Source of the DNA: a virus | IMG/VR virus record: IMGVR_UViG_3300013120_000767 | Location: 62,001-126,000 of that record | Length of the DNA stretch: 64,000 nt | Reading direction: 5' to 3' (one strand) | Part shown: positions 13,116-48,031 of the stretch, in pieces | Numbering within the stretch: the stretch's first letter is position 1 | Layout of the letters: each line of letters starts with the position of its first letter | Made by a program: the position numbers and the translations under genes | Notes under the pieces: model-generated | Seen by the model: the letters and a program-made list of their open reading frames with translations, nothing else | What the model was told of the DNA's origin: nothing | Database searches by the model: none

Positions 13116-13134
13116 GTCGAAGCTAAAGGAAAAG

Positions 13135-13166: not shown

Positions 13167-13198
13167 GGGTCCTCAAACCCACCCTGAGCAATAGCGAG

Positions 13199-15939: not shown

Positions 15940-15951
15940 CTCTTACCTCCG

Positions 15952-16047: not shown

Positions 16048-16075
16048 CCTGCCGCCTCGGAGGGTGAAGCGAAAG

Positions 16076-18074: not shown

Positions 18075-18190
18075 TCGTCCTCCGTAATTGACAGCTCAGC
18101 GGCAATCTCGATCAAGTCAGTAGGAGAGCCGGAAAACCCCAACTCCCGCATGTGGGCGATGATGTCTTCCGGCTCTTCGATAAGTACCGT
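18071..18190 (-). other. Open frame without a start codon, ending on the ATPase ATG
   Basis: The gap between the 363-residue gene and the ATPase gene carries a coding-like frame (VLIEEPEDIIAHMRELGF, then SPTDLIEIAAELSITEDE) whose TGA overlaps the ATPase ATG. No ATG, GTG or TTG precedes it in frame for about 100 bases; the only one inside is an ATG at 18151 (26 codons, poor Shine-Dalgarno). The frame is -1 relative to the 363-residue gene, whose end contains GGGCCCT in the phase required for a -1 slip. It may be a frameshift extension, a small gene with an unusual start, or chance. Confidence 0.3.
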
Positions 18191-18195
18191 GGGAG

Positions 18196-20614: not shown

Positions 20615-20970
20615 AGTGGCTTCATGCCGCCAGGGTAGATAGTGACGGTTTTGCGACCGTCGTCCTTATGCTCCTCCAGGACGGCGTCGACGTCGGCGTG
20701 CACAACTACCGCATACTGCCGATGGTCGAAGACGACGGCAAACGCCGGCGCCAGCCCCAGGCGAGCCGCCCGTTGGCGGATGGCCAATAGGAGGTCCTTG
20801 TTGACCCGGTGCCCCGTGGCGCAGGTGTGCTTCACTTCCACCAAGTGAGTGGCCGAGATTACGTCTTGTTTCCGGGCTGGGTTGCGGGAGCACCCCGATC
20901 CTTTCTGAAGCTCCCCCTCGTACAGGCGGGCAACCGCTGCTTCTGCTTCCTGCCAAGTCATGTCCGCCAT
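20593..20970 (-). CDS. Hjc/VRR-like PD-(D/E)XK Holliday-junction-type nuclease
   Basis: The 125-residue protein has the compact archaeal-Hjc/phage resolvase layout: E20 in the first helix, GSGCSRNPARKQDV with D36, then the catalytic strand THLVEVKHT with E45 and K47. A helix (NKDLLLAIRQRAARLG) and a strand (APAFAVVFD) follow. These form the E-D-ExK active site of small branched-DNA nucleases. It overlaps the Cas4-like gene by 22 bases and lies just downstream of the RecA-like gene. Other PD-(D/E)XK activities remain possible. Confidence 0.75.
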   Translation of the reverse strand: MADMTWQEAEAAVARLYEGELQKGSGCSRNPARKQDVISATHLVEVKHTCATGHRVNKDLLLAIRQRAARLGLAPAFAVVFDHRQYAVVVHADVDAVLEEHKDDGRKTVTIYPGGMKPLWKTEYI

Positions 20971-21098
20971 GCCTCCATATTAGATGTGCTTTCGTTGGCA
21001 GCGGACACCTTCGCCTTCAGGCAGTTGAGGAACTGCCTGGTGGGCTTGGTACGCGTGCCCCCAGCCGCTACTTTGGTAGTAGTTAGGGGAGTTGTCAA
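20958..21098 (-). CDS. Possible 46-aa basic peptide (TTG start)
   Basis: A TTG at 21098 overlaps the stop of the RecA-like gene as TTGA and is preceded by GAGGA. It opens a 46-codon frame filling the gap to the Hjc-like gene, whose start it overlaps. The peptide is Thr/Lys-rich (TTPLTTTKVAAGGTRTKPTR). TTGA overlaps recur at several convincing junctions in this genome, which supports it. Confidence 0.45.
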   Translation of the reverse strand: MTTPLTTTKVAAGGTRTKPTRQFLNCLKAKVSAANESTSNMEAWRT

Positions 21099-22279: not shown

Positions 22280-22415
22280 GTCTCACCTCGAACGGCTCAG
22301 TTCCGCACTTCGGGCACCAGTGAGCGCCCCCCCGCTTCTCTACTTTGCTCCCGCACTTGGGGCACTTCCCGTCCTTTGGACCTTCAGTTTGCACTGCCAG
22401 TTTTTCTAGAACCAT
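22260..22415 (-). CDS. 51-aa zinc-ribbon protein
   Basis: The ATG at 22415 follows GGGAGGAGCGTC. The small protein has CPKCGSKVEKRGGAHWCPKCG, two CxxC knuckles of a rubredoxin/zinc-ribbon type. Its end overlaps the RecA-like gene start by 20 bases and its start lies inside the end of the upstream gene. A partner role to RecA is only positional inference. Confidence 0.65.
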   Translation of the reverse strand: MVLEKLAVQTEGPKDGKCPKCGSKVEKRGGAHWCPKCGTEPFEVRRGKEGE

Positions 22416-22734
22416 GACGCTCCTCCCAATCACGTTTGAAGTTGTCGTCGCTTTTCTTGGCGAGCCTAAGGAGCTCCCTGGCGACGTTTGAGTGTGGCTC
22501 GGACTTCTGCATGCGGAGGACCTTGACCACCTCGTGTGGGCTCTTTGCCTGTATGTAGCGGTGTCTCTCCTCTTCTCCCGGGATAGGTGACCCCCCAACA
22601 ATTTGGAGCAGGTAACCTACCTTTGTGCGGTATAGCCGCAGCTCCGTGTGCCGCTCCCACCCGCCTTCGGTGGAGGCCTCGGCCACCAGAGCGCCGCTAA
22701 AGGAGAACACTAACTTCCCTGGTTTCTTGGTCAT
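22384..22734 (-). CDS. Unknown 116-aa protein
   Basis: The ATG at 22734 (MTKKPGKLVF) is favoured over the upstream ATG at 22782 because GGAG precedes it and the GC hairpin at 22747-22770 lies between. The first half is beta-rich (LVFSFSGALVAEA...LRLYRTKVGYLLQIVGG), the second helical and basic. No family recognised. Confidence 0.65.
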   Translation of the reverse strand: MTKKPGKLVFSFSGALVAEASTEGGWERHTELRLYRTKVGYLLQIVGGSPIPGEEERHRYIQAKSPHEVVKVLRMQKSEPHSNVARELLRLAKKSDDNFKRDWEERHGSRKTGSAN

Positions 22735-22746
22735 CGAATCTCCTGT

Positions 22747-22770
22747 GGGGGGCCCGTTTCCGGACCCCCC
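22747..22770. other. GC hairpin in an intercistronic gap
   Basis: GGGGGG and CCCCCC, with further pairing inside (CCG/CGG), form a strong stem immediately upstream of the Shine-Dalgarno site of the 116-residue gene. It lacks a T-tract, so an mRNA-stabilising or processing element is as likely as a terminator. Confidence 0.5.
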
Positions 22771-22795
22771 AGTTCCTTCCAAACACTAGGCCGTC

Positions 22796-23260
22796 TCAGG
22801 ACGCCAGCAACTCAGCTTCTGCTCCCTGGAACCGAGTGAACTTCTCCGGGATGCACCCCGGGCTCCACTTGGCGACGACCTGAACTCCTTCTTCGACCAC
22901 CTTGACGTAGCCGACGTAGGGCTCGCCCTGGCTGGGGCGGAACAGCCGCAGACCGGTCACGGTGGACCGGAAGCAGTCGTACCGCTGCTTCACCAGCTCC
23001 CCGTCACCCTTCACGATGACGCACTGAGTGCCGGCGATGATGAGCGGCCGGTACCCTTTGCGCACGTCCCGGGAGAGGACGACCCAGCCATTACGCCGGC
23101 CGCCCTTGGTGCGGGCTGCAATGAAACCGTCTCCCACCAGGTTCTTCTCTTCGAGAGCTTCGTTGAACTCTCCCTCTCGGTAGTGTTTACCCCAGCCGAT
23201 GAAGCCGGGGCGGCCGGACCGCCAAGATGCCTTGGCCCGACCAAGTTTCTTTTTCGCCAT
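22796..23260 (-). CDS. Unknown basic 154-aa protein
   Basis: The start has GGAGG about ten bases upstream. The N-terminus is basic (MAKKKLGRAKASWRSGRPGF); the rest is a beta-rich domain (GWVVLSRDV, YRPLIIAGTQCVIVKGDGE, VQVVAKWSPG). No family recognised. It is the first gene downstream of a GCTATAAGAAC motif and a 70-base gap, so it may begin a transcription unit leading into the RecA cassette. Confidence 0.65.
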   Translation of the reverse strand: MAKKKLGRAKASWRSGRPGFIGWGKHYREGEFNEALEEKNLVGDGFIAARTKGGRRNGWVVLSRDVRKGYRPLIIAGTQCVIVKGDGELVKQRYDCFRSTVTGLRLFRPSQGEPYVGYVKVVEEGVQVVAKWSPGCIPEKFTRFQGAEAELLAS

Positions 23261-23330
23261 ATCAATGGCCTCCTTCCACCTCCCCTCAGGCGGAACAAGT
23301 TCCTGAGCCCGGAGTAGGGGTTTCCCCGGA

Positions 23331-23711
23331 CTAATTCACTCCACCGTTCTTATAGCAGATTCCCCCGAGCGACTGAGTGTACTGAAGTACGATTCCGGGC
23401 TTCCCTTCCTGCGAAACCGCTGCTACTACGGCGTACTCCCTCTTCTCCCGGCTGTAGCCGATCCACAGGCAGTTGGGTGGCGGCCCCAACTCGTCCAGGT
23501 CCAGGGCTACCCAACTCCCAATGCGTTGGGGGGCGTCGGCGCTTACCAGCCAGAAACGCCCCCGTTCGTTTTGGGAGACAGTGAGCCCCGACGGAAGCGT
23601 ACCAGCCTTGTCATACCTCCGAAACACCCGCACCAATGTCTGCACGAACCCGTCCAGGTCGTCTGTCTCCTCAAAGATGGGGTGGCAAAACCTCCGTCGT
23701 TGCGCTTTCAT
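23331..23711 (-). CDS. Unknown 126-aa protein
   Basis: A small alpha/beta protein with an N-terminal helix pair (DLDGFVQTLVRVFRRYD) and several strands (GRFWLVSAD, REYAVVAAVSQEGKPGIVLQYTQS). No family recognised. Its start overlaps the DNA polymerase stop by four bases, so it is made with the polymerase. Confidence 0.7.
   Translation of the reverse strand: MKAQRRRFCHPIFEETDDLDGFVQTLVRVFRRYDKAGTLPSGLTVSQNERGRFWLVSADAPQRIGSWVALDLDELGPPPNCLWIGYSREKREYAVVAAVSQEGKPGIVLQYTQSLGGICYKNGGVN
23346..23356 (-). promoter_or_regulatory. GCTATAAGAAC motif, candidate promoter
   Basis: Read leftward the motif is GCTATAAGAAC, 86 bases before the ATG at 23260 and just inside the end of the preceding gene. The same 11-mer, with A or T at one position, precedes two other leftward genes at similar distance. 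A consensus -35 is not visible. The leader after it has an inverted repeat (CTCAGGAAC...GTTCC...TGAG). Confidence 0.4.
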
Positions 23712-25606
23712 TTTCCCTCTTCCCAGTTGTCCGCCACTGCTGCGTCTACAGTGAGGGGGACATCCAGTTCAATCCCGGGGTGCTCCATATCCGCCCGGAC
23801 GAGCTCGAGGGCCCGGGCAGCATGTTCCGCAGGTACTTCGATAATGATTTCATCGTGCACCTGCAAGAGCATCTCGGCTCCTAACTTCCGGAGTTCCTCG
23901 TCGGCGTCCATCTTCACCATGGCCAGCTTCATGATTTCGGCCGCCGTCCCCTGAATGGGGGTGTTATACGTTCTGCGCTGGGCCTCTGCAATAGCGCTCC
24001 ACTGCTTCCGGCTCTTGGGCCAGTAAACATAGCGCTTCCTTCCAAAGTACGTCGGGATGAACCCCTGCTCCTTTGAGAAGTCGACACAGTCGTCGAAGAA
24101 TTCCCGGACGTCGTAGTGGACGTCCCAGTACGCGTCCAGGTACTTCTGGGCTTCCCGTTTGGACACGATCATGCCAGCGTCCTTCTTCAGGTTTTTGACG
24201 AGCCCGTAGGCGGTCAACCCGTAGAGAACTCCAAAGTTGATGGTTTTGGCCACGGAGCGGTACTTCAGGAGCTGCTCGTCTCGTTCCGTGACGTCCCCTT
24301 TGGGCTTTTTCTTGGCTGCGACGATGTCCTCGTACGGGACGTTGAACATGCGGGACGCCGTCAGCGAGTGCATGTCCATGCCTTGCAAGATGGGCTCAAG
24401 TAGGGTCTTGGCCTGCGCCAGGTGCGCCAACACCCGCATTTCGATCTGGGCGTAGTCGGCCGCGATGAGCTTGTAGCCCTCCCTGGCAACGAACGCCCGG
24501 CGGATGTGGAAGCCGTGCTTGTCTTTGTCCGAACGGGGGATATTTTGCAGATTAGGATCTGAACTTGACAAGCGCCCCGTCGCAGTTACATGCTGGTTGA
24601 AGTGGGTATGGATGACGTCCTCTATCATCCGCTCCAGGGGGCCCTTGACGTAAGTGCCTCGGAACTTGTCCACCCCCCGGTACTCCTGGATGAGCTCCAG
24701 GACTGGGTCGTTCAAGTTCTGCTCCTGGTCCAGCAAGGTGGACAGGGACTCCGCATCGGTAGAGGGCAAGCCGGTGTCGGTCTTCCCCACTACTGAGTAG
24801 CCCAACACCTCGAACAGCGCATAGCGCAGCTGCGGGTGGGACTTCATGTTGACCACCCGCCCAGCGTAGCGGGAGAACTGCTCCGTGATCTTCCGGAGGC
24901 GCTCCTGCATGGGCGCCAGCAACCCTTCCAAGTACTCCCGGTCCAACCGCATCCCTCGGCGCTCCATCCTCCACAGAATGGGAGCCAGCGGACGCTCCAT
25001 GGTGATGTAGTAGTCCCATAGGGTGCACTTCTTGCCCGTAGTGTACGCCTCGGCCTCATACAGGTCCTTGAATATCACGTGGAAGATCATGATGGTCAAC
25101 CACGCATCCTTGGCCGCGTAGTCGACCAGTTGCACAAAGTCTTCGCCGGTGACGTCCTCCAATTTCATCTTGGAGAAGTTATACTGCCGGAACTTCTTCG
25201 GGGGCACCCCGAGTATCTTCCAGGAGAGCCCCTTCAAGTCGTGGAACCCGTCCGGGTCCCACAGGTTGGACATCATTTGGGTGTCGAAGCAGCGGGCCCA
25301 GAGCTTCATCGGGTCGAATCCTGCATTGGTCAGCAGGTGGATGTCATAGGCGGCATTGTGGAAGATTAGAATAGTGCTCGAGTCTTCTTCCAGGAATTGC
25401 TTCAGCGCATCCAGCGTGTACGCCTTGGTGGCGTACCTCGCTTCGGTGTTCGCAAAGGACCACAGCACGATGTGGTCCCGAATGATGTCCAACCCTGTGG
25501 TCTCGGTGTCAACGGCAAGGAACCCCCCCGTGGAGGCTTCGCGCAGCTTAGCGAGGACCTCCTCGCTGGTTTCCAAATACTGTGGTGGGGGGATTTCCCT
25601 GATCAT
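23708..25606 (-). CDS. polA-like: Family A DNA polymerase with 3'-5' exonuclease
   Basis: The 632-residue protein copies DNA and proofreads it. The exonuclease domain (about 1-200) has DTETTG (D33, E35), a second motif with FHNAAYD and a third in DYAAKDAW. The polymerase domain has motif A at about 380 (ADYAQIEMR), motif B at about 450 (KTINFGVLYG) and motif C at about 580 (VHDEIII), so all catalytic Asp/Arg/Lys are present. The 5' nuclease domain of host Pol I is absent, as in phage replicases. Phe rather than Tyr in motif B predicts discrimination against dideoxynucleotides. It follows the primase and zinc-finger genes. Confidence 0.95.
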   Translation of the reverse strand: MIREIPPPQYLETSEEVLAKLREASTGGFLAVDTETTGLDIIRDHIVLWSFANTEARYATKAYTLDALKQFLEEDSSTILIFHNAAYDIHLLTNAGFDPMKLWARCFDTQMMSNLWDPDGFHDLKGLSWKILGVPPKKFRQYNFSKMKLEDVTGEDFVQLVDYAAKDAWLTIMIFHVIFKDLYEAEAYTTGKKCTLWDYYITMERPLAPILWRMERRGMRLDREYLEGLLAPMQERLRKITEQFSRYAGRVVNMKSHPQLRYALFEVLGYSVVGKTDTGLPSTDAESLSTLLDQEQNLNDPVLELIQEYRGVDKFRGTYVKGPLERMIEDVIHTHFNQHVTATGRLSSSDPNLQNIPRSDKDKHGFHIRRAFVAREGYKLIAADYAQIEMRVLAHLAQAKTLLEPILQGMDMHSLTASRMFNVPYEDIVAAKKKPKGDVTERDEQLLKYRSVAKTINFGVLYGLTAYGLVKNLKKDAGMIVSKREAQKYLDAYWDVHYDVREFFDDCVDFSKEQGFIPTYFGRKRYVYWPKSRKQWSAIAEAQRRTYNTPIQGTAAEIMKLAMVKMDADEELRKLGAEMLLQVHDEIIIEVPAEHAARALELVRADMEHPGIELDVPLTVDAAVADNWEEGK

Positions 25607-26664
25607 CAGGCGGCCTCACCCTCCGTCTTGGACCTGGCTTGCGCCCGGAAGGGGTTGGGTATCCCCAACAGCGCTGCTTGGTCGTCTGTGGACTGGCGGT
25701 CGTACGCCTTGAACCGGTAGGGGTACTTTCGGGCCTCCAGCATGCCCTCGTCCTCAACGGCCGTTGGGAAGTGGTTGTGCAGCTTGAGCACCTTCCCTCG
25801 CCCCTTGGGGTTCGGCACCTGCTCAATCTCCAAGTCGCAATCCCAGATATCGTAGAAGGTGGGGCTCCCGCACCCTTCCGAGACTTCCTGGGTACGGTGG
25901 TTGCGAACCTGGCAGTCGTGCTCCAGCTCCATGTAGCCCTCATGTCCGCAGTGGGGGCACTTGGCCTCCTCTACTTCCATCAGGAGTAGCGCGTCAAGGC
26001 CCACGTGGATCGCCTTACCGCACTTGGGGCAAGTCGCCTCGACAGGGAGCACCTCGCCCTCGTCGCAGGAGCGGCACTTCCGGGAGATCTCCCGGGACCA
26101 TTGGCAGAATGCCTCCCAACCAGCCTCGTCGAGGTCCAAGTGGCATTTCCGCCAATTGACCGTGACGTGCCCCGCTTTGCAGTGCTCGCAGCCCTCCCCC
26201 GTGCAGCGGGCGTAGCGGAAGCGGAACCCCTCGTCGTCCGGGTCCTTGCCCTCACTGCCCTCCAGCGGTACCTTGTGCAGCTTTGCATACTGGATGATGT
26301 TCACGGCGTACCAGGGGTTGGCGTAGAAGTGGTGCTTCGAAGTTTCCTTGAAGTACTCCTCGTCTTCCCAGCAAGGCACGCAGTCCTCGTCCCGATTGCC
26401 GGCGTGGCAATTGCAGGTGAGGAACCACCCCATCTTCTGGGGGTTGAACGGGTTCTGCACCCCGGGGGCCCAGCCCCGGTAATGCACGAACACTGCCTCG
26501 TTTTCATCCTCTCCGTACGTCCCGGGGAACGCCCGGATGACCTCCCGCTGACCGTCTTGGAGAATCAGCTTCGGATCGGTCCTCGTGCTGGTGAACTGGC
26601 GACTCCTCTTCTTGCGCCGCTTGTCCCCTCTGTACTGATTCAACAACTTGTCGTCTACCCGCAT
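25606..26664 (-). CDS. Multi-zinc-finger replication-associated protein
   Basis: The 352-residue protein has at least four Cys clusters: CNCHAGNRDEDCVPC (about 84-98), CTGEGCEHC, CRSCDEGEV...CPKCG and CPHCGHEG. The N-terminus is very basic (DKRRKKRSRQF). It lies between primase and polymerase and its stop overlaps the polymerase ATG (TGATG). A single-strand DNA-binding role is suggested by position and zinc content, as in T4 gp32, but no OB-fold is recognisable and the name is left open. Confidence 0.7.
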   Translation of the reverse strand: MRVDDKLLNQYRGDKRRKKRSRQFTSTRTDPKLILQDGQREVIRAFPGTYGEDENEAVFVHYRGWAPGVQNPFNPQKMGWFLTCNCHAGNRDEDCVPCWEDEEYFKETSKHHFYANPWYAVNIIQYAKLHKVPLEGSEGKDPDDEGFRFRYARCTGEGCEHCKAGHVTVNWRKCHLDLDEAGWEAFCQWSREISRKCRSCDEGEVLPVEATCPKCGKAIHVGLDALLLMEVEEAKCPHCGHEGYMELEHDCQVRNHRTQEVSEGCGSPTFYDIWDCDLEIEQVPNPKGRGKVLKLHNHFPTAVEDEGMLEARKYPYRFKAYDRQSTDDQAALLGIPNPFRAQARSKTEGEAA

Positions 26665-27604
26665 GAGCTCCTCCTATGTTGTGCTCAAGTATACTCCTAA
26701 CTTCCCTCACCGACAGCTCGTCGGGTTGGGTGGCTTCACAATCTTCGCCGTAGTCTACAATGTGGGCCTTCACTCCCCGCCACCGTAGCTTGCCTCGGTA
26801 GCTCCAAGCGGCCCGTTGGCCCTCCTCGTCGTTGTCCATGAACAGCAGTACCCGGGCGTCGTACTTGGTCAACACCCGGACTTGCTCTCCCCCCATCGCC
26901 CCCATGGCTCCCAGGACGTTGGGGAAGCCTGCCTCAAACACCCTCATGGACTGCTTGGGCCCCTCCGTCAGGATGATGGTATCGTACTCGCTCTCCCACA
27001 CGGCAGGGAGGACCACGTGCCCATTGATGAAACACTCGTCCTTCCCTGTTTCATCGTAGACGACGTCCATGCTGGAGAACTCCTCGGGGGAGTAAAATCG
27101 GTACCGGGTCTGCCAGTCCTCTACGGCCTTCAAGTCCCGGTAGTGCAAGGCTCGTAGCCTCCTCCGGTGATCCCGGATGGGATACACAACCCGGTCCCGC
27201 TCAGCATCGTACCTGACGTCGAAGTGGTCGATGACGCGGTCAGGGAACGGGAGCTTCCCATACGCTTCGGGGAAGAGGAACAGGACCTCCTCCGGCAGCG
27301 TGCTTGGCCCCTTCTTGGCAATCTTGGGAATTCGGGGGGCGTCGGACACCAGCCCCGCCTGCTTGATTTGCCTGTACGTCTCCCCCATCTCCAGCTCGGC
27401 CAACAGCTGGTACAGCGTCCACCCCCGATTGCAGGACTTGCAGTTGCACAGGCCCGTATGTATGTGCATGGTAAATGACCACCCACGGTGGCGCCCACCC
27501 GAGTGGAACGGGCATTTGAACATGACGTTCTCCGACCCGCCCCTGCGGCAGGGGCCGAGGACTCCCTCAACCCAGTCGATCAAAGGTGTCTTGTTGCCTA
27601 CCAT
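26504..27604 (-). CDS. DnaG-type DNA primase
   Basis: The 366-residue protein begins with a CHC2-type zinc-binding module: CPFHSGG at about 30, then CNCKSCNRG at about 53. The central part includes the primase core (DRVIDHFDVRYDAERDRVVYPI). The TOPRIM domain follows: ILTEGPKQSMRVFEAG with the catalytic Glu and VLLFMDNDEEG with the DxD metal site. It should make RNA primers for the adjacent DnaB-like helicase. The last 50 residues overlap the next gene by 161 bases and look non-native (Arg/Gly/Glu/Ser-rich), so the functional C-terminus may end near residue 310. Confidence 0.9.
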   Translation of the reverse strand: MVGNKTPLIDWVEGVLGPCRRGGSENVMFKCPFHSGGRHRGWSFTMHIHTGLCNCKSCNRGWTLYQLLAELEMGETYRQIKQAGLVSDAPRIPKIAKKGPSTLPEEVLFLFPEAYGKLPFPDRVIDHFDVRYDAERDRVVYPIRDHRRRLRALHYRDLKAVEDWQTRYRFYSPEEFSSMDVVYDETGKDECFINGHVVLPAVWESEYDTIILTEGPKQSMRVFEAGFPNVLGAMGAMGGEQVRVLTKYDARVLLFMDNDEEGQRAAWSYRGKLRWRGVKAHIVDYGEDCEATQPDELSVREVRSILEHNIGGAHAGRRQVVESVQRGQAAQEEESPVHQHEDRSEADSPRRSAGGHPGVPRDVRRG

Positions 27605-28863
27605 AGTGGCGTATCCTCCCGTTCCTCCTTCTCCTGTTGTTGATTGGCGGCCATCGCCATGTCATCGCCGGGGGAGTAGTTTATCTTGAACGGTTTGATT
27701 GGCAGCTTCCGCTCTGCCGGGAAGCCTACCCACATATAGCTAGCCCGGGCCGGCCGGCGCAATTTTATGGATAGGTCAGGTTTGGCGTATACGTTTTGTG
27801 AATAGGCGTAATCGGACTGGTCCTCAATGCCGCTGGTCTTGGCCTCCCGAATATGGGACTGCCACGAAGCCAGGAAGTGAACCTTGGTGCGGTTGGAAAT
27901 CCCACACGCTTCAGTGATGAGGTTCGACTGTTTACGCCAGTCCAAGTCGTCCGCTGCGGCGTAGAGGGCGTCGTAGTACAGTACGTCCGGGCCAAACGAG
28001 TTGATTGCCTCCCGCACCGCCGCCAACCCTTCTCCGTTGTCCTCGTAGATTCTGAGCTTGGAGCGCATCCCGGACATATTGGTTTCACTGCGTAGTTTCT
28101 GCAAGAAGTCCAAGAACCGGGCTTTTTCGTCGTCGAGCAGCTGCCCCCGCCAGTACTTCTCCAACGAAATGCGCGCCAACTGGCACGCCAGAATGGTGAG
28201 TACTTCCGGCCCTTGCATCTCCTTACCGACAATTACCGCCACGCGGGCGTGATGGTAGCCGAAGAAGTGAGCACAAGCCTCCAAGCAGAACATGGTCTTT
28301 CCGGTTTTTGGCGGGGCGGAAACCAACGTGAACTTCCCAGGGCAGGCGCCGCCCGTCCCCTCGTTGATCGGGCTCCAGGGCCAAGGGATGCCGATGATTC
28401 CATCATTGGTGCCAATCAGCTCCATCTCCTTAATGATATGGTCGTAAGCAGAGGTCGCTAAATCGAGTGAGGTGGCGCCCACCACCGGCGCCAGGTCGGA
28501 GCAGAGCTCCTGCATCATTTCCAATGCTTGGCTCGGATTTACTTGGGACATGTTTTCGATGCCGGGGAGGTGGACCGCCATGTGGCGGCGCATTTTCTCT
28601 TCGACCAGCATGGACACCAGGACGTTGAGGGTGTAAGTGGTTCTCTTGGGCAAGTCTACTTCTGCAAAGCGGGCCAACAGGACATCTTCCGTAGGTGTGG
28701 TTCCCCACCGGTCCTTGTCATGGTACCAACTGAACAGGTAGTCATACAGGACCAGGGCATCCACTGTGACCAGTAAGTCTCGGCGCAGCCCTACCTTTAC
28801 TCCCTCCCCGAAACCTTCGTTTACCAGGGCTCTTACGGCCTGGAGTTCAATGCTAGCGCCCAT
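27598..28863 (-). CDS. DnaB-like replicative helicase
   Basis: The 421-residue protein has a helical N-terminal domain and a RecA-type ATPase core. Walker A is SAPPKTGKT at about 184-192, Walker B is the DVLYYDAL strand at about 288, and a further core strand is HFLASWQSHI. It unwinds DNA 5'-3' at the fork in known relatives. The GGAGGAG site before the ATG is strong; the stop overlaps the primase ATG, so helicase and primase are co-translated. Confidence 0.85.
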   Translation of the reverse strand: MGASIELQAVRALVNEGFGEGVKVGLRRDLLVTVDALVLYDYLFSWYHDKDRWGTTPTEDVLLARFAEVDLPKRTTYTLNVLVSMLVEEKMRRHMAVHLPGIENMSQVNPSQALEMMQELCSDLAPVVGATSLDLATSAYDHIIKEMELIGTNDGIIGIPWPWSPINEGTGGACPGKFTLVSAPPKTGKTMFCLEACAHFFGYHHARVAVIVGKEMQGPEVLTILACQLARISLEKYWRGQLLDDEKARFLDFLQKLRSETNMSGMRSKLRIYEDNGEGLAAVREAINSFGPDVLYYDALYAAADDLDWRKQSNLITEACGISNRTKVHFLASWQSHIREAKTSGIEDQSDYAYSQNVYAKPDLSIKLRRPARASYMWVGFPAERKLPIKPFKINYSPGDDMAMAANQQQEKEEREDTPLW

Positions 28864-29540
28864 TGCTCCTCCTGTGTCAGCTGAGTAAGCTTGGACAACT
28901 CACTCAGGTGCTGGCCGGGGGTGCCGACGAGGCAGCGGGCCTGGACGAGGCGCAGGCCTTGCAAAGCCATCGCCGACCGTTCCCGTCGCCGGAGTTCGTC
29001 GATAGGGTAGAAATAAGGGGTCCTGGTAGTCATCAATTTGTCCGCCAGGTCTGCCTGCAATTTCTCTACGGCCCATTTCCACTCCAAGTGGGGCCGTTCC
29101 ATAATGGGGTATTCGTCCTTCAGCTGCCGCAGGGTAACAGGGAAGGGGGGCATCGTGTGCCACACGCCCTTGGTGCGGAAGATATGCCCGAGAAACAAAG
29201 GCAGGTTATCAGCCGCCCGGAGGTACACGCCGCTACAGTAGTCGGCCCCAATCATCATACAGACCAGGGCAAGGGGGAGCCCCTTGAACACAACGTACAC
29301 CTGCGGCATGTGGCACAGCCCCTCCAGGGCAATTGCTACCTCAGTAAGGTTGCCCACAAGGGCGTGGTGACCAACCGGGTAATGAGGGACACCCACCCAC
29401 TTCGTGGGAGGGCGGTAGCTGGGACGGGTTGCGCCGGTCACCTTCACCTGCTTCCCGGTGCGTTCAAAACGGGCCTTAGTTGGCCCCCCGAACTGTTCCC
29501 GGCACGCAGCAATGAGTCCTTCCCAGCTACACGTTCGCAC
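28833..29540 (-). CDS. Unknown 235-aa protein
   Basis: The GTG at 29540 lies two bases before the end of the upstream stop codon and follows AAGGGGTGG; this beats the longer frame, which would run through the upstream gene. The protein has a globular alpha/beta pattern (VYVVFKGLPLALVCMMIGADY; LPLFLGHIFRTKGVWH) and ends in heptad-like leucines. No family recognised. It ends 31 bases inside the DnaB gene. Confidence 0.65.
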   Translation of the reverse strand: MRTCSWEGLIAACREQFGGPTKARFERTGKQVKVTGATRPSYRPPTKWVGVPHYPVGHHALVGNLTEVAIALEGLCHMPQVYVVFKGLPLALVCMMIGADYCSGVYLRAADNLPLFLGHIFRTKGVWHTMPPFPVTLRQLKDEYPIMERPHLEWKWAVEKLQADLADKLMTTRTPYFYPIDELRRRERSAMALQGLRLVQARCLVGTPGQHLSELSKLTQLTQEEQWALALNSRP

Positions 29541-29541
29541 A

Positions 29542-29991
29542 CTACCACCCCTTGGGCTTACCAACTCCGGACTTGTACGTCTTTCCGTCTTCGCCAGGCA
29601 AGAACCGCCTCGCCGTCGAGGGCAGCCCGCCAGCATCCTTGCCCTTGCGCAGCAGCTTCTCCACGCCGGATACGGAGGGGGGCTTGATTATCCCTGCTTC
29701 GAGCATTTGCTTCCACCATTTGAAGATGCCTGGCCGGGCGTACAACGGGTTGGCTCGCCTGGTGAACGAGAAGTCGCAGCAGATAGGGATGAGGTTGACC
29801 CCGTCCGGGAACTTGGCCCCCCCTGCCAACTCGACAAGGTGGATCATCAGTTTTTTCTCTGCCTGCTCCAAGCTTTCCAGCTCGGCGAAGATTTTGCGGT
29901 GGCCATCTACAAATGCCGCCTTGGCTGTCCGCAATCGCGTCAACTCCTCGACAATGCGGGCGGCCTGCTCCAATGTTTGCTTCATCGACAT
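29542..29991 (-). CDS. Unknown 149-aa helical protein
   Basis: The ATG at 29991 has AAGGAG eight bases upstream; the longer frame would overlap most of the glycosylase end without a site. The first 60 residues are helical (EQAARIVEELTRLRTAKAAF), the rest mixed with a short basic C-terminal part ending in KPKGW. The arrangement recalls Gam-like or packaging-type small proteins, but nothing specific is recognised. Confidence 0.65.
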   Translation of the reverse strand: MSMKQTLEQAARIVEELTRLRTAKAAFVDGHRKIFAELESLEQAEKKLMIHLVELAGGAKFPDGVNLIPICCDFSFTRRANPLYARPGIFKWWKQMLEAGIIKPPSVSGVEKLLRKGKDAGGLPSTARRFLPGEDGKTYKSGVGKPKGW

Positions 29992-30593
29992 TTCAACACT
30001 CCTTTCAGGGTACTCAAGATACGGAGTACCCCAGCTAAGTCCTCCTCCCATTCCCTCGTCTTTTCCGGCTTCCGGTCGATGAAGGCGGGGTGATGGACCA
30101 TGTACACTGGAAGAGTCCACGTGAGCTCGCCCAGTTCCATCGGCAGGCGGAACATCCGCCCCCGTAAATCAGTGATTCCTTGCGTCGTGTGCAGCAGCGC
30201 CTGCCCGCTGATCCGGCCGAGGCCGACAATCATGAACGGGTCCAGTAGGCGCAGTTGCTCCATCAAACGGGGCGCGCACACCCCGTACTCGTCTTTGCGG
30301 GGGTCTCGGTTGTCCAAGGGGCGGCACATGACCACGTTGGTCAAGTAAGCGTCCTTGGGGTCGAACCCTACCTGTTTGAGGGCTGCTTTAAGGCGCTGAC
30401 CGGACTTCCCCACGAAGGGCCTCCCGGTATCATCCTCTACTTCCCCCGGGGCCTCCCCGATGAATACTACCTTTGGGGATAGGCTGCCCGCCCCGAACAC
30501 GGTGTGGTTCCTGTCCTCGTGCAGTCGACACTTCGTGCACGCTGACCACTCCGTTTTCAAACGTCCCAATGCGGTAGCCGATGTTTTGGGCAT
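29982..30593 (-). CDS. Family-4 uracil-DNA glycosylase (Fe-S)
   Basis: The 203-residue protein removes uracil from DNA. The Fe-S cysteines are C19, C22, C90 and C106. Motif 1 is GEAPGEVEDDTGRPFVGKSG at 46-65 and motif 2 is VHHPA at 166-170, both diagnostic of family 4. This family is most common in thermophiles, and the phage presumably uses it against cytosine deamination. Its start is inside the end of the SF2 helicase gene (164-base overlap) with GAGGAAGT before the ATG. Confidence 0.9.
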   Translation of the reverse strand: MPKTSATALGRLKTEWSACTKCRLHEDRNHTVFGAGSLSPKVVFIGEAPGEVEDDTGRPFVGKSGQRLKAALKQVGFDPKDAYLTNVVMCRPLDNRDPRKDEYGVCAPRLMEQLRLLDPFMIVGLGRISGQALLHTTQGITDLRGRMFRLPMELGELTWTLPVYMVHHPAFIDRKPEKTREWEEDLAGVLRILSTLKGVLKCR

Positions 30594-33195
30594 ACTTCCT
30601 CATCATTTGAGCCATGGCATAGCACGGCTTAGCCTTGGGCACGTAAACGATCACCCAGGGCTGGTTCTTACTCTCAACATCCCGTAAGGACCGCCAGATG
30701 GCTTGCAAAAACCGCCCTTCCGAATCCTTCCCGACGGGCATTGTGATGAGGACTAAATCGAGGTCCAGCCGATTCAGACCCTCTCTCGCAGCTCCCATTG
30801 TTCCGACAATCAAATCGTTTGTCAAGAGCTCTTTTTCCCGCTTCTCCCATTTCACCTTCCCGGTAATGATTCCAGTAGGTTGGAGCTTCTCCTCGAACAA
30901 GTCATGCAGCCAATGGGCGTGTTTTCGAACATGGGTGAATACCATAGGTATTCTCCCTTGTTCGACAAACCCCCTGACGTCCGCAAAGATGCGGCGGTTG
31001 AACCCTCGCTCTTTGGCGATTTTTTTCCAAAACAGAGGAAAGTTGAACTTCCCTCCGCGATCTATCACATCTTTGTCGTGCTCTGTAGTCTTGATGGGAA
31101 CTTCAACGAAGGCCACCAGGGGCTTCATCGAGTGGTAGGTCGACCGGTATATCACCGGCCCCAGGTGGTAGAGGTACAGCGGTAGGGTGCCGTCCGCCCT
31201 TTCGGGGGTAGCCGTGAAACCGAACCTGGCTCCCCGGAACATGGAGGCGACTTTCAGCCCGGTAGGGGACCCAAGATTATGGACTTCGTCAAACACCACT
31301 GTTCCGAACTTGTCCCGTAACTCGACCGGGTAGATCCCAGCCTTCAAGGCCAGCGATCGCAGCGAGGCGATGACAATGGGCTTCTCCAGCTCGGAGTACT
31401 TGGCCCCATTGAAGACGCCGATGTCCTCCTCAGCAATTCCGGCCTTGTCCGCCAGCTCCCGCTTCCAGCCGCTGATGATGGACAGCGTGGGGAGGATGAC
31501 GATGGTCGCCTTGCCCCGCTGCACGATCTTCTTGACGGCCAGGACAGTGTTATGGTTGATGAAGCCATTACCGTAATACTCGTGCCCGTTGGGTACGGTG
31601 AAGTCCACTACGTCCTCAACGGTATTCTGGAGCTTGGTTACTTTCAGGAAGCGGAGACCGTAGCGGTCTATTTCCCTCAAGAGGCTTTCCAGAACCCTTC
31701 GGATGTGGTTACCCTTTTTCCCTTCTTTGTCTCGTACAATGCGTAGGAACTCACGCAAACGAGGGCGGCTGATGCCGACGGTTCGGGCATCCTTGTACGC
31801 AGCGTACACCTCTTGCCCGTACTCTTTGGCGCACTCGTACACCAGCCTACTGACTGGGACGACATCAATATTTGAGTTTCGGGGCCTCCTTTCCAGGTGT
31901 CTACGCAAAGTCGCCAGGGAGGCACCTTTGCTCCCAGAGCAAAACCCAATTTTCTCGGCGAACTTGATAACGTCGCCTCCACGGATTCCTACCTCCCAGG
32001 CATCTAAGTGGGTTGTTTTCTTTTTCCGCACTTTGGCCAGTATGCCCAATGCAAGGAGAGCTTGCTGAATCTCCCTAGAAAGCCGTTCGCTAGCAGACGA
32101 CGAGGTTACGCCGTCTTTGGGGATTACCCCCCCATCTGCGGTAAAGTACCCTTGGAGGAACCAACGTAGTACGTCGCTCCCTTGCCGCAGAACCGCCACA
32201 GGTATCGTTTTGTTCTCCGACTTAACCGAGAGAAGTCCATGGTGTTCCAGCCACGCCTTGTACTGGCAGGAACATATTTCGTAGTCGCAGTTGGACCCGG
32301 TGCCTTTACGCAACTTCACTCCTGCTGCCTTAGCGTGAGCCCGCATGACTCGCAACACGTCAGGGTCGACAGTTGATATCCTTGTCCGATTCCTAACGGT
32401 AAGCCCCCCGTCTCCAACAAGGAGCCCCAGAACAATAGCGTCTGTCCGGGATAGCTGCCCGGTTAGGTTAATGTCCGTTGACGAGTAGTCGGGGTCCTTC
32501 CGGGCATACTTGAACTTCTTCGCCTTAGCCGCTCCCCAAGACATGGAAGTAGCCAAAGCGACGTAGTCCCCCTCCTTCAACTCCCCCACCATGGTCCAAT
32601 TCAGGGTAGCTGTATCCGGGTCTAATGTAACAAGTGGGTGCTCCAATGTGCCTGCTTCCTGATATCCTAATTGCGTCTCTATAGAACGGCAGACAGAGAC
32701 TGGGAAGCGGTACGCCCTAGTTGCTTGTTGTGGGCCATTACGGGAATCTAGGAATAAAGCCTCCCCACTTGTTATTGCTAAGTGGGCGTCCTCGGCCCTG
32801 AAAATTCCTTGGTCAGTGTACAACCAAGTTCCCAACCCTACGCACTTCCCGCGACCCCCCGGAATGGAAAAAAGGCCGCCGTCGGCGTGCCTCAATGCCT
32901 CCCAGGCCTTCTCCTGTTCGGCATCCAGGAAGGAGGTTACTCGATCCTCCATGCGGGAAAAGTCCCGACCGGGAGGGGTCAAGTCCAGGACCTCCACGTC
33001 CATGGGGAACTCCCGGGGGATTGCTATGTGGGTGTCCGATTCGTGATAGCCGATACGGGCATGCTCGATACCGTCCAAGTCGGTGTTGTGGAAGGTCAAC
33101 CGCTCCCGGACTTCGGCAAGGTCGACCTCTGCCTTCCGCAGGAAGAGCAGGCCTGACTTGAACGAGGGCATCTCCCGTAGGTCTATGATGTTCAT
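30430..33195 (-). CDS. SF2 DNA helicase interrupted by an intein
   Basis: The precursor is 921 residues. The helicase parts are 1-117 and 550-921. The P-loop is IPGGRGK followed, after the intein, by T550, restoring GGRGKT. Motif II is VVFDEVHN and motif III GFTATPERADG; a C-terminal helicase domain carries QAIWRSLRD-type motif VI. After splicing the enzyme should have about 489 residues, a size seen for phage UvsW/ERCC3-like helicases. The start abuts an upstream stop (TAGATG), so it relies on translational coupling. The last 50 residues overlap the glycosylase gene and are rich in Gly/Arg. Confidence 0.85.
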   Translation of the reverse strand: MNIIDLREMPSFKSGLLFLRKAEVDLAEVRERLTFHNTDLDGIEHARIGYHESDTHIAIPREFPMDVEVLDLTPPGRDFSRMEDRVTSFLDAEQEKAWEALRHADGGLFSIPGGRGKCVGLGTWLYTDQGIFRAEDAHLAITSGEALFLDSRNGPQQATRAYRFPVSVCRSIETQLGYQEAGTLEHPLVTLDPDTATLNWTMVGELKEGDYVALATSMSWGAAKAKKFKYARKDPDYSSTDINLTGQLSRTDAIVLGLLVGDGGLTVRNRTRISTVDPDVLRVMRAHAKAAGVKLRKGTGSNCDYEICSCQYKAWLEHHGLLSVKSENKTIPVAVLRQGSDVLRWFLQGYFTADGGVIPKDGVTSSSASERLSREIQQALLALGILAKVRKKKTTHLDAWEVGIRGGDVIKFAEKIGFCSGSKGASLATLRRHLERRPRNSNIDVVPVSRLVYECAKEYGQEVYAAYKDARTVGISRPRLREFLRIVRDKEGKKGNHIRRVLESLLREIDRYGLRFLKVTKLQNTVEDVVDFTVPNGHEYYGNGFINHNTVLAVKKIVQRGKATIVILPTLSIISGWKRELADKAGIAEEDIGVFNGAKYSELEKPIVIASLRSLALKAGIYPVELRDKFGTVVFDEVHNLGSPTGLKVASMFRGARFGFTATPERADGTLPLYLYHLGPVIYRSTYHSMKPLVAFVEVPIKTTEHDKDVIDRGGKFNFPLFWKKIAKERGFNRRIFADVRGFVEQGRIPMVFTHVRKHAHWLHDLFEEKLQPTGIITGKVKWEKREKELLTNDLIVGTMGAAREGLNRLDLDLVLITMPVGKDSEGRFLQAIWRSLRDVESKNQPWVIVYVPKAKPCYAMAQMMRKYAQNIGYRIGTFENGVVSVHEVSTARGQEPHRVRGGQPIPKGSIHRGGPGGSRG
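31549..32844 (-). other. Intein with LAGLIDADG homing endonuclease (C118-N549)
   Basis: The 432-residue insert begins with Cys118 and ends HN (548-549) before Thr550, the residues needed for protein splicing. Block A starts CVGLGTWL, block B is AGTLEHPLVT, block F DFTVPNGHEYYGNG and block G FINHN. Two LAGLIDADG motifs occur at about 255-265 (VLGLLVGDGGL) and 344-356 (FLQGYFTADGG), each with an acidic residue, so the endonuclease may be active. Removal joins GGRGK to TVLAV and restores the ATP-binding loop; unspliced protein should be inactive. Confidence 0.9.
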
Positions 33196-33852
33196 CTATT
33201 GTGCCGCTACCTGTTCCCGGTAGCTGAGGACTGCTTTGGCGTGCCGGCGGTAGCTCCCACAACCGTTCCAGTACTGGAGCCACACCATTTCTTCCGAGCC
33301 GGGGATGACCCGGCACCTTCTGGTACACCGGTTGTTCTCATCGGTGGCCAGGCAACGGGGTCCATTTCTATCCACCCGTTTCTTCAACTGGTCGTACGCT
33401 GTCATCATCACGTCCAGGGACCGCTCGAAGTGCCGCATATCCAGCACTGTGTACTCAGTCCCGTGTTCCTTGTTGTGCGCCCGAATCCAACTCCAGGAGG
33501 GGGAGTGCCGCAGCTGCCATTCGCTGACTTCTGCCGCCTTCTTCCGGATGACCCGGTTGGGTAGGTCCCATCCGTTCATCACCTTGGTGTAGCCCCCCAC
33601 GCACTTCCATTCACCATTGCTTTTGACCCACTTGTGGCACAGCCTCATAGCCCCCCGGACACCGCCGTAGCTCTCCTGTTTGACGACCCGGGCACAGACG
33701 TCGAAATTCATGTCCGTGAGCAAGGTCAACGCCAGGCAGGAATAGACGCCCTGGTCGGTGATGCCGAAGTGGCTCTGCACATCATCCACTTCCCGCAGTT
33801 CCGGATTGAACCCAAGGGTGTGCACAAGCAAGACGATTGCTGCCAAGTTCAT
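33196..33852 (-). CDS. Secreted-looking protein, possible lytic transglycosylase-like
   Basis: The N-terminus MNLAAIVLLVHTLGF is a short hydrophobic stretch that could be a signal or membrane anchor. The ARVVKQES...GAMRLCHKW segment and a final WLQYWNGCG...RRHAKAVLSY resemble, loosely, the catalytic Glu region and last helices of SLT-type lysozymes. Seven Cys suggest disulfides or metal binding. The match is too weak to name an activity. It is coupled to the helicase (TAGATG). Confidence 0.5.
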   Translation of the reverse strand: MNLAAIVLLVHTLGFNPELREVDDVQSHFGITDQGVYSCLALTLLTDMNFDVCARVVKQESYGGVRGAMRLCHKWVKSNGEWKCVGGYTKVMNGWDLPNRVIRKKAAEVSEWQLRHSPSWSWIRAHNKEHGTEYTVLDMRHFERSLDVMMTAYDQLKKRVDRNGPRCLATDENNRCTRRCRVIPGSEEMVWLQYWNGCGSYRRHAKAVLSYREQVAAQ

Positions 33853-34106
33853 GCGTCACCTCCATGCTTCCCCCCAAAGTCGAGGGTGTATGTGCACGCG
33901 TGTTTCCCCGCCAGGGAAGACAGCAAGACACGGAGGGCGTTGGCATTACCCCCTCTGCGCCCTACGACCTTGCCGAGGTCTTCCGGGTGCACCGTTACCA
34001 CTACTGACACCTTCTTTCCTTCGAGAATGGTATGTTCTACTATATCTACCTCTTCCGGGTGGTCAACGAGGGCCTTTACGACCGGCTCGATTATTTCCTT
34101 GATCAT
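33849..34106 (-). CDS. KhpA-like KH-domain RNA-binding protein
   Basis: The 85-residue protein matches KhpA/YlqC over nearly its full length: IKEIIEPVVKALVDHPEEV, a strand pair, then VTVHPEDLGKVVGRRGGNANALRVLL. The GxxG nucleic-acid loop is G49-R-R-G52, preceded by VHPEDLGKVV as in cellular KhpA. Cellular KhpA binds RNA as a dimer and partners KhpB (Jag). A phage copy could affect mRNA or sRNA. It is the first gene after the hairpin-rich gap at 34.1-34.4 kb. Confidence 0.85.
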   Translation of the reverse strand: MIKEIIEPVVKALVDHPEEVDIVEHTILEGKKVSVVVTVHPEDLGKVVGRRGGNANALRVLLSSLAGKHACTYTLDFGGKHGGDA

Positions 34107-34263
34107 CTTGGCATGCCTCCCCCTTGATTCGAGGGGTTATTCTACCAGACTTGTGGGAAACCATCAAGCTTCGCTGACTCTCTCGACGAGGGTATCGTAC
34201 GCACGTGCACCCGCGCCCGCGCCTGCGCAATATACATAACAACAACTACAACTAAACCCCAAC

Positions 34264-34296
34264 GGGGGCTCTTCTAGTATCCCTAGAAGAGCCCCC
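34264..34296. other. Perfect 14-bp stem hairpin
   Basis: GGGGGCTCTTCTAG and CTAGAAGAGCCCCC flank a five-base loop. It is in the 284-base non-coding gap between two leftward genes. No T-tract follows in either direction. It could stabilise or process mRNA, or be a binding site for a dimeric protein. Confidence 0.6.
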
Positions 34297-34311
34297 AGAG
34301 GGGGTTGAGTT

Positions 34312-34343
34312 GGGGGCTCTGCCCCCCGGACCCCCGTTTTTTT
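34312..34343 (+). terminator. Rightward terminator-like hairpin with T7 tract
   Basis: GGGGGC-TCT-GCCCCC (or the longer GGGGG...CCCCC pairing) is followed by GTTTTTTT on the rightward strand. Both flanking genes are leftward, so it would stop antisense transcripts running rightward. Confidence 0.5.
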
Positions 34344-34356
34344 AAAGAGACCACCC

Positions 34357-34373
34357 GGGGGGCTATGCCCCCC
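34357..34373. other. GC hairpin (GGGGGGC-TAT-GCCCCCC)
   Basis: A perfect 7-bp GC stem with a three-base loop, 18 bases downstream of the stop of the leftward 274-residue gene. Read leftward it is followed by GGGTGGTCTCTTT, a weak terminator tail for that gene. Confidence 0.5.
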
Positions 34374-46016: not shown

Positions 46017-46141
46017 TTACTTCCCTCCAGGTTCTCCGAAGTCAACTATAGGCACCAGGCGCAGAGTGACTCCGGTATCAGTGACTTGAATCTCTATTTT
46101 GTAGAAGTCATCGGGCTCCAGAATCACAGTCCCGCCTTTGC
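46017..46141 (-). pseudogene. 3' fragment of a small gene split by the TnpB element
   Basis: The frame reads KGGTVILEPDDFYKIEIQV then TDTGVTLRLVPIVDFGEPGGK and stop, a coherent beta-rich sequence that starts exactly where the insertion ends. It fits in frame with the fragment at 47,349-47,420. The joined product would be about 65 residues. Confidence 0.7.
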
Positions 46142-46150
46142 ACCGAGAAG

Positions 46151-46170
46151 CCACCGACTTGAGTCGGTGG
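46151..46170. repeat. Left-end hairpin of the TnpB element
   Basis: CCACCGACTTGAGTCGGTGG is a near-perfect palindrome whose centre resembles the right-end hairpin (CGACTTCAGTCG). TnpA of this family recognises such hairpins. Confidence 0.75.
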
Positions 46171-46225
46171 AGGGATAGGCGCTTTCCCCTTGACAAGCCA
46201 TTTGCGCATTTCTATCATAGAATCG

Positions 46226-47350
46226 ATGAAGCTGGTTGCCAACATAAAACTTCTCCCGTCGCCAGAGCAGGCGGAAGCCTTGCGGGCAACCCTGGAACGC
46301 TCCAACGAAGCTTGCAACTGGATCAGCACTCAGGCATGGGAGCACAAGTGCTTTCAGGTCTATCGCCTCCAATCCGAAGTCTACCGTACAGCCAGGGAAC
46401 GGTTCGGTCTTTCGGCCCAAATGACTGTGCGGTGCGTCGGCAAGGTCGTTGATGCGTACAAGGTGTTCAAAGGCAAGCAGCGGGCTTTCCGCAAGCACTC
46501 CGCTCAGCCATACGACGACAGAATCTTCCGGTTCTGCAAGGAAGACACGGTGTCCATCTGGACGCTTGAAGGCAGGCAAAAGATTCCCTTCGTCTGCGGT
46601 GAGCATCAACGGGCCATGCTTTCTCACGCCCATGGACAAGTTGACCTCATGTTCGTTCGCGGCTCTTGGTACATCGGAGTTGTCTGCGACATCGATGATC
46701 CTGAAACCTTCTTTCCTGAGGGTGTTCTTGGGGTTGACCTCGGAATTGTCAATCTCGCCTGCGACAGCGATGGACGAAGCTACTCCGGGGAAGCCGTAGA
46801 GGACAACCGGCGCAAGTATCAGCATCGCCGCAAGAATCTTCAGAAGAATGGCAGCAAGGCGGCGAAACGGAAACTGAAGCAGGTGTCCGGCCGCCAAGCC
46901 AGATATCAGCGCGACGTAAACCATTGCATCAGCAAAGCAATCGTAGAGGAGGCGCAACGCTCCCGACGAGGAATTGCCCTGGAAGATCTCAAGGGCATCC
47001 GTGGCCGGGTACAGGCCAGAAAGCGCCAACGCAATCGATTGCACAACTGGAGCTTCGCCCAACTTCGGGCCTTCGTAGAGTACAAGGCCCGACGGGCTGG
47101 AGTTCCGGTATTCGTGGTTGACCCCCGCAACTCCAGTCGGGAGTGCCCCGACTGTGGGCACATCTCGAAGCGGAACCGACCCACGAGAGACTCGTTTTCG
47201 TGTCGGGCCTGTGGCCGTTCCGGCCCGGCCGACCACATCGCGGCGCTGAATTTGAGCGCCAGGGCCGCTGTCAACCGGCCGATGGTAGGGGGTGCGACCA
47301 TTCATGTTGCTCCTACCTACAAGCCCTCGACTTCAGTCGAGGGTTGTTGA
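46226..47350 (+). CDS. tnpB: TnpB RNA-guided endonuclease
   Basis: The 374-residue protein (ATG at 46226; a longer frame starts at 46190) has the N-terminal domain with KLLPSPEQAEAL and the RuvC nuclease: D171 in GVDLGIVNL, E253 in ALEDLKGIRG, D336 in ADHIAALNL. The zinc site is CPDCG (C307, C310) with CRACG. All catalytic residues are intact. TnpB of this family uses an omega-RNA from the element's right end to cut DNA at an adjacent motif. The stop codon lies at the element edge, so the last codons overlap the right-end hairpin. Confidence 0.9.
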   Translation: MKLVANIKLLPSPEQAEALRATLERSNEACNWISTQAWEHKCFQVYRLQSEVYRTARERFGLSAQMTVRCVGKVVDAYKVFKGKQRAFRKHSAQPYDDRIFRFCKEDTVSIWTLEGRQKIPFVCGEHQRAMLSHAHGQVDLMFVRGSWYIGVVCDIDDPETFFPEGVLGVDLGIVNLACDSDGRSYSGEAVEDNRRKYQHRRKNLQKNGSKAAKRKLKQVSGRQARYQRDVNHCISKAIVEEAQRSRRGIALEDLKGIRGRVQARKRQRNRLHNWSFAQLRAFVEYKARRAGVPVFVVDPRNSSRECPDCGHISKRNRPTRDSFSCRACGRSGPADHIAALNLSARAAVNRPMVGGATIHVAPTYKPSTSVEGC

Positions 47351-47368
47351 CTACGGTGTGGGTAGTAC
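47200..47368 (+). ncRNA. Predicted omega-RNA (reRNA) region with guide
   Basis: In this family the guide RNA is transcribed across the 3' part of tnpB and the right end, and the guide is the next 15-20 bases beyond the element. Here those bases are TTGACTACGGTGTGGGTAGT, belonging to the broken host gene. The boundary is inferred from family knowledge, not from a folding calculation. Confidence 0.35.
47324..47343. repeat. Right-end hairpin of the TnpB element
   Basis: CCCTCGACTTCAGTCGAGGG, a strong palindrome at the 3' end of tnpB, part of its coding sequence (PSTSVEG). Confidence 0.8.
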
Positions 47369-47420
47369 CGCTCAGGAGCCGAAGGTCCCCGCCCTTCAAG
47401 CGATTGTACAAGCTGCTCAT
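47349..47420 (-). pseudogene. 5' fragment of the small gene split by the TnpB element
   Basis: The ATG at 47420 overlaps the upstream TGA (ATGA) with GAGGAG before it. It reads MSSLYNRLKGGDLRLLSGTT then HTVV and runs into the element, where it meets a stop. It joins in frame to the fragment at 46,017-46,141. Confidence 0.7.
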
Positions 47421-48031
47421 GGTAGCTCCTCTTCTTGCGCGTTTGCGGTCCCATAGGCCTCGGTGATTTCGGCGTGCAGCCGCATTACCCGGCGGTCGAT
47501 ATGGTGAATCTTCGCTAGAGCGTACTCCTGGCCGCATTCGAGAGCATCGTCGGCGGCCTTTCCGCATTCGTCGCTGATGGCGGCGAGCCGAGCTATGATC
47601 ATAGAGGCATCAAGCGGTGTTATTTTTGTCCTCTTCGGGTTGGCTCTCCCGGTTGCAGCGTACCTCATGACTCTGTTCCAGGCGGCGATGGCTTCTTCTC
47701 GATTCCCAGAGGATGGTCCCGTGCACCCGCAGGACTCGCCTGTACAGCAGACTCGGTGGTTGCCATAGTGGTTGGACATCACTACGGGTGCATTGTCGCA
47801 GCAGGAGCAGAGGGCCAGAGAGAGGAAACCTGCATTGTCCGGCCCGTCGATCATCCTGTTCCAAGCTATGACGGCCTTGTCGTGGGTGATTTTGCAGCCG
47901 GGCCCCACCCAGCAGGCTGCCTCGGAGCACATGGGATGGTGGAGGCCGTCCGAGGCAAAGACGACCTCGGCGAGGCTGTCGCAGTGGGGGCAAGGGTGCA
48001 TGGTGGGATCTCGTAGTGTAGAAACTGCCAT
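47417..48031 (-). CDS. Double Lar-like (restriction-alleviation type) zinc protein
   Basis: The 204-residue protein has two copies of a Lar-like domain. The first reads HPCPHCDSLAEV...CWVGPGCKITHDKAVIAWN (12-58); the second CSCCDNAP...CGCTGPSSGNREEAIAAWN (74-120). These share the CxxC, central CxxxxC or CGC and the EAxxAWN ending of the Lar family. Lar of Rac prophage relieves EcoK restriction; most phage relatives are untested. The C-terminal 80 residues are helical. AAGGAG precedes the ATG. Confidence 0.65.
   Translation of the reverse strand: MAVSTLRDPTMHPCPHCDSLAEVVFASDGLHHPMCSEAACWVGPGCKITHDKAVIAWNRMIDGPDNAGFLSLALCSCCDNAPVVMSNHYGNHRVCCTGESCGCTGPSSGNREEAIAAWNRVMRYAATGRANPKRTKITPLDASMIIARLAAISDECGKAADDALECGQEYALAKIHHIDRRVMRLHAEITEAYGTANAQEEELP

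What the first reader, a model, noticed from the sequence alone, without database searches (positions are those of the whole stretch)
46017..47420. TnpB element that splits a small phage gene, with reconstructable target
Removing the element joins MSSLYNRLKGG...HTVVN with KGGTVILEPDDFYK... in frame, giving about 65 residues. The gene sits in an ATGA-coupled operon, so it was functional. TnpB keeps all RuvC residues. The predicted guide begins TTGACTACGG, the right flank, and the left flank ends CCTTTG, a candidate adjacent motif.
Basis: partly seen in the sequence, partly recalled or inferred. Interest (0 to 1): 0.65.

Follow-up and report, generated by a model that had tools for sequence, protein, structure and literature searches.

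The report
TnpB transposon inside small phage gene

Summary
The core observation holds. A 1,224-bp IS200/IS605-type element (46128-47351, +) carries tnpB (46226-47350). All three RuvC catalytic residues and four zinc-ribbon cysteines are present. It interrupts a 59-codon gene on the opposite strand of a ~134-kb phage record. Removing it restores one open frame, MSSLYNRLKGGDLRLLSGTTHTV|VILEPDDFYKIEIQ..., coupled to its neighbours at both ends.

(1) The guide does not begin TTGACTACGG. In 31 related elements the terminal hexamer NNTGAC pairs and covaries with a hexamer inside tnpB (181 of 186 positions paired; best shuffle 160), so TTGAC is RNA scaffold. The guide begins TACGGTGTGGGTAGTACCGC. 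(2) The left flank is not CCTTTG. Related elements start just after NTCAC/T (21 of 24 left ends; shuffle mean 2.4). Here that is ATCAC at 46123-46127, matching the TCAC motif proven for AmaTnpB. The restored gene therefore has 59 residues, not 65.

No intact copy of the gene was found: the only sibling contig ends before this region. tnpA is absent. Phage-borne TnpB is common, so this is a new member of a known kind. Nuclease activity and spread between phages are inferred, not shown.

The parts
46128..47351 (+). complete IS200/IS605-type (IS1341-like, no tnpA) element, 1,224 bp
   Evidence: right end fixed by two copies of a 47%-identical relative at different sites and by 31 related right ends; left end by the motif in 21 of 24 left ends and by pairs of related elements at different sites
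46123..46127 (+). ATCAC, the TAM / left cleavage motif in the flank (also gene sequence)
   Evidence: NTCAC/T sits directly left of related elements; TCAC is the measured TAM of AmaTnpB (PMC10278001)
46151..46170 (+). left-end hairpin CCACCGACTTGAGTCGGTGG, 23 nt from the motif
   Evidence: 8-bp stem
46190..46218 (+). promoter-like TTGACA-17-TATCAT inside the left end, 7 nt before the tnpB start
   Evidence: 11 of 12 consensus positions; consensus match only
46226..47350 (+). tnpB, 374 aa; codons of D171 (46736-46738), E253 (46982-46984) and D336 (47231-47233)
   Evidence: PF07282 69 bits, PF01385 33 bits; invariant residues in alignment A1; aligned to solved Cas12f/TnpB chains
47270..47275 (+). 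GTCAAC inside tnpB, 5' half of the omega-RNA pseudoknot
   Evidence: covaries with the terminal hexamer in 31 elements
47324..47343 (+). right-end hairpin CCCTCGACTTCAGTCGAGGG
47346..47351 (+). GTTGAC, 3' half of the pseudoknot and last bases of the element
47352..47371 (+). predicted guide TACGGTGTGGGTAGTACCGC
   Evidence: first flank bases after the element's right end; the 20-nt length is assumed from published TnpBs
47352..47420 (-). 5' piece of the split gene (MSSLYNRLKGGDLRLLSGTTHTV)
46017..46127 (-). 3' piece of the split gene (VILEPDDFYK...EPGGK, stop)
   Evidence: codon score 14.2 bits for this piece
47417..48031 (-). upstream gene, Lar-like restriction alleviation protein, overlapping the split gene by ATGA
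   Evidence: PHROG 599, E 1.3e-7

Best explanation
An IS200/IS605-type element without its own transposase was carried into this phage, presumably by a TnpA supplied in trans. It inserted 3' of an ATCAC inside a 59-codon accessory gene, on the opposite strand. Its tnpB transcript is processed into an omega-RNA whose scaffold ends ...GGGTTGTTGAC and whose guide is the adjacent phage sequence TACGGTGTGGGTAGTACCGC. The TnpB-RNA complex would cut the empty allele (ATCAC followed by the guide sequence) in element-free phage genomes or after excision. Repair from an element-bearing copy would then restore or spread the element. The element-bearing copy is spared because TTGAC, not ATCAC, stands before the guide at its right junction. 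Shown here: element, ends, intact catalytic residues, covarying scaffold, restored frame. Inferred: activity, guide length, cutting, spread.
For: Full-length TnpB with invariant D171/E253/D336 and zinc cysteines. Right-end pseudoknot covariation in 31 elements: 181 of 186 positions paired, shuffle mean 140.7, maximum 160. Exact right end from two copies of a relative at different sites. NTCAC/T in place in 21 of 24 left ends, shuffle mean 2.4, maximum 8. Pairs of related elements at different sites diverge at that motif (L053/L060, L066/L076). TCAC is a measured TAM. The corrected join is in frame with no stop, and its codon score of 16.2 bits exceeds the 99th percentile of control frames, 15.4. 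The start overlaps the upstream stop, and the next ATG is one base after the stop.
Against: No empty allele or homologue of the small gene was found. The sibling contig G003 ends at window 34363 and does not cover the site. The nearest related TnpB found is 54-55% identical, so the TAM is inferred from rather distant relatives. The spacing from ATCAC to the hairpin (23 nt) is at the long end of the usual 17-23 nt. No expression or cleavage data exist.
Confidence: 0.85

Rival explanations
1. Boundaries as the first reader drew them: left flank ends CCTTTG, guide begins TTGACTACGG, restored protein about 65 residues.
For: This join is also in frame (sequence).
Against: TTGAC is part of the element in two copies of a relative at different sites and covaries with an internal hexamer. 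No relative shows CCTTTG at its left end, whereas 20 of the 23 others show TCAC/T.
Confidence: 0.04
2. The flanks were never one gene: two separate short frames happen to join.
For: No homologue of the joined protein was found. The 5' piece alone has a weak codon score (2.0 bits).
Against: The boundary chosen from relatives, independently of frame, gives an open 59-codon frame with native-like codon use, an ATGA overlap upstream and a start codon one base after its stop.
Confidence: 0.1
3. The TnpB has been taken over by the phage as a guide-directed regulator or defence tool (TldR-like) rather than acting as a selfish element.
For: Phage-encoded TnpB-derived TldR regulators are known (PMC13418256).
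Against: The catalytic triad is intact, the element keeps both ends, and the guide points to its own insertion site, with no other close match in 134 kb plus a sibling 145-kb record.
Confidence: 0.05

Closest known systems
IS200/IS605-family TnpB elements (ISDra2 TnpB, AmaTnpB), IS1341-type arrangement
   Same: RuvC triad and zinc ribbon, subterminal hairpins, omega-RNA from the 3' end of tnpB and right end, insertion 3' of a short motif that serves as TAM (PMC8612924, PMC10278001)
   Different: no tnpA in the record; carried by a phage and inside a phage gene; at most about 55% protein identity to the relatives found
TnpB elements of Chloroflexota, Armatimonadota, Geobacillus and Rhodovastum (L053, L005, L018, L009)
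   Same: 44-55% identical TnpB, the same end architecture and the same NTCAC/T motif
   Different: chromosomal or plasmid location; different insertion sites and guides
TnpB genes in other phages (Thermus phage MN1, Rhodothermus phage RM378)
   Same: TnpB homologues in phage genomes; 409 phage records match
   Different: below 60% identical over the match

Membership tests
IS200/IS605 TnpB | RuvC catalytic D, E, D | tested here: met
   D171, E253, D336 invariant; aligned with solved Cas12f/TnpB chains
IS200/IS605 TnpB | C-terminal zinc ribbon and OrfB domain | tested here: met
   PF07282 and PF01385 over cut-off
IS200/IS605 TnpB | subterminal hairpins at both ends | tested here: met
IS200/IS605 TnpB | omega-RNA scaffold overlapping the tnpB 3' end, ending at the right boundary | tested here: met
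   covarying pseudoknot; fold z -3.2; RNA itself not observed
IS200/IS605 TnpB | family motif (TAM) directly left of the element | tested here: met
   ATCAC, as in relatives
IS200/IS605 TnpB | RNA-guided DNA cleavage | not testable with these tools
   needs a cleavage assay
autonomous IS605 (tnpA + tnpB) | Y1 transposase tnpA | tested here: not met
   PF01797 absent from G000 and sibling G003; hence IS1341-type
TldR (nuclease-dead TnpB regulator) | loss of RuvC catalytic residues | tested here: not met
   triad intact
IStron | group I intron allowing splicing of the host transcript | tested here: not met
   no group I intron match; element is antisense to the split gene
IscB/HEARO | HEARO RNA above curated threshold with an IscB gene | tested here: not met
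   25.8 bits against 83, wrong strand; Pfam shows only TnpB domains

The most novel reading that the evidence does not exclude
The element works as an RNA-guided homing element in a phage: during mixed infection its TnpB cuts sibling genomes at the uninterrupted small gene, so that element-bearing genomes displace them, despite the cost of losing that gene.
Probability: 0.3. Interest if true: 0.5.

Novelty: new member of a known kind. Interest (0 to 1): 0.3.

Why it matters
Phage-borne TnpB elements are common. Here the ends, motif, guide and disrupted gene are all defined to the base, which gives a ready-made test of whether TnpB drives an element through phage populations, as has been reported for plasmids (PMC11870625). 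It also shows that the terminal TTGAC of such elements must be read as scaffold, not guide.

Tried and rejected
Intact gene: tblastn in phages, peptide patterns in viral contigs, a degenerate VILEPDDF pattern (19 hits, none a convincing homologue) and the exact empty site all failed. The patterns (neighbour genes, TnpB) found no near relative. The sibling record G003 was identical over 20 kb but ends before the site. The HEARO match was rejected as a resemblance of the DNA ends, below threshold and on the wrong strand. Phage relatives by DNA polymerase, ATPase or neighbour protein are only about 24-34% identical, too distant to expect the gene; their genomes were not searched for it one by one.

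Full report
What is there. The window is positions 62001-126000 of a 134,075-base virus record. Genes around 42-52 kb run on the minus strand. On the plus strand lies one TnpB gene, 46226-47350 (374 aa), with Pfam Cas12f1-like_TNB at 69 bits and OrfB_IS605 at 33 bits; it is the only one in the record. D171, E253 and D336, and cysteines 307, 310, 326 and 329, are invariant in an alignment with eight relatives, and the catalytic region aligns with solved Cas12f and TnpB chains. Neither this record nor its sibling holds a recognisable Y1 transposase.

Right end and guide. Two near-identical Geobacillus-group elements (47% identical TnpB) at different sites agree up to GGGTAGTTGAC and diverge at the next base. 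Most relatives end the same way: AAGC, a hairpin, then NNTGAC or NNTTAC. The last six bases are complementary to a hexamer about 40-75 nt upstream of the hairpin, in the 3' end of tnpB. In 31 distinct elements 181 of 186 positions pair, against a shuffle mean of 140.7 and maximum of 160 in 5,000 shuffles, with changes on both sides such as GTCAAC/GTTGAC, GTCATG/CATGAC, GTAAGC/GCTTAC and GTCAAG/CTTGAC (one of the 31, L013, was mis-parsed and counts against the pairing). The shuffle does not correct for relatedness, but the variety of pair types across phyla makes inheritance alone unlikely. TTGAC is therefore scaffold, and the guide begins at 47352, TACGGTGTGGGTAGTACCGC.

Left end and TAM. Among 24 left ends in which the script found a hairpin (the window included), 21 have TCAC or TCAT 13-27 nt before the hairpin; shuffles give 2.4 on average and never more than 8. 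L053 and L060 share AGAAAAAGACCC directly after TTCAC and CTCAC, and L066 and L076 share CAAATCATGCGG directly after TTCAC, with different sequence further left. The window has ATCAC at 46123-46127, then AGTCCCGCC..., 23 nt before the hairpin. TCAC is the measured TAM of AmaTnpB (PMC10278001). CCTTTG lies inside the element. The element is thus 46128-47351, 1,224 bp.

The split gene. Joining 46127 to 47352 gives, on the minus strand, MSSLYNRLKGGDLRLLSGTTHTV|VILEPDDFYKIEIQVTDTGVTLRLVPIVDFGEPGGK, 59 aa, open and in frame. Its start overlaps the stop of the upstream gene (ATGA, 47417-47420), a Lar-like protein (PHROG 599, E 1.3e-7). A further ATG lies one base after its stop. Its codon score is 16.2 bits; control out-of-frame stretches have a 99th percentile of 15.4 and true genes a mean of 22.

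Is there an intact copy? None was found. A sibling contig, G003, is 100% identical over 20 kb but starts at window 34363, so it does not cover the site. Other phages are about 24-34% identical in the proteins tried. The claim that the gene was functional therefore rests on the sequence alone.

How it most likely works. By established knowledge of IS200/IS605 (PMC8612924), TnpA, here supplied in trans, inserts the element 3' of its motif without target duplication, and the right end of the element plus flank becomes the guide RNA. TnpB then cuts the empty site, ATCAC plus the guide sequence, and repair restores the element. In the occupied genome the guide sequence is preceded by TTGAC, one core base away from TCAC, which would spare it; a search of the record with up to three mismatches finds this site and one other weak match. 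A strong promoter-like site lies 7 nt before the tnpB start. Nuclease activity, guide length and any spread among phages are inferred. Gene drive by TnpB has been reported for plasmids (PMC11870625).

Novelty. TnpB is widespread in phages: 409 records match. The end architecture and motif are shared with bacterial elements. This is a new member of a known kind, of moderate interest because its natural target is fully specified.

Noticed in passing
window 46190-46218: Near-perfect sigma-70-like promoter (TTGACA-17-TATCAT) ending 7 nt before the tnpB ATG, suggesting a leaderless tnpB transcript; several relatives have TATACT-like boxes at the same place.
   Followed up: partly
window 47348-47350: The tnpB stop codon TGA lies inside the terminal TTGAC, so the reading frame runs through the whole right end.
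   Followed up: no
window 47191-47351, minus strand: Sub-threshold HEARO (IscB omega-RNA) match, 25.8 bits against 83, reflecting the similar GTCAAC-hairpin end and its internal GTTGAC partner read from the other strand.
   Followed up: partly
window 47417-48031: Upstream neighbour is a Lar-like restriction alleviation protein, possibly with two CPxC-type modules.
   Followed up: no
window 14365-34363 / G003 1-20000: IMG/VR contig IMGVR_UViG_3300009314_000004 (145 kb) is 100% identical over at least 20 kb and seems to be the same phage broken at window 34363, so the full genome may exceed 134 kb.
   Followed up: partly
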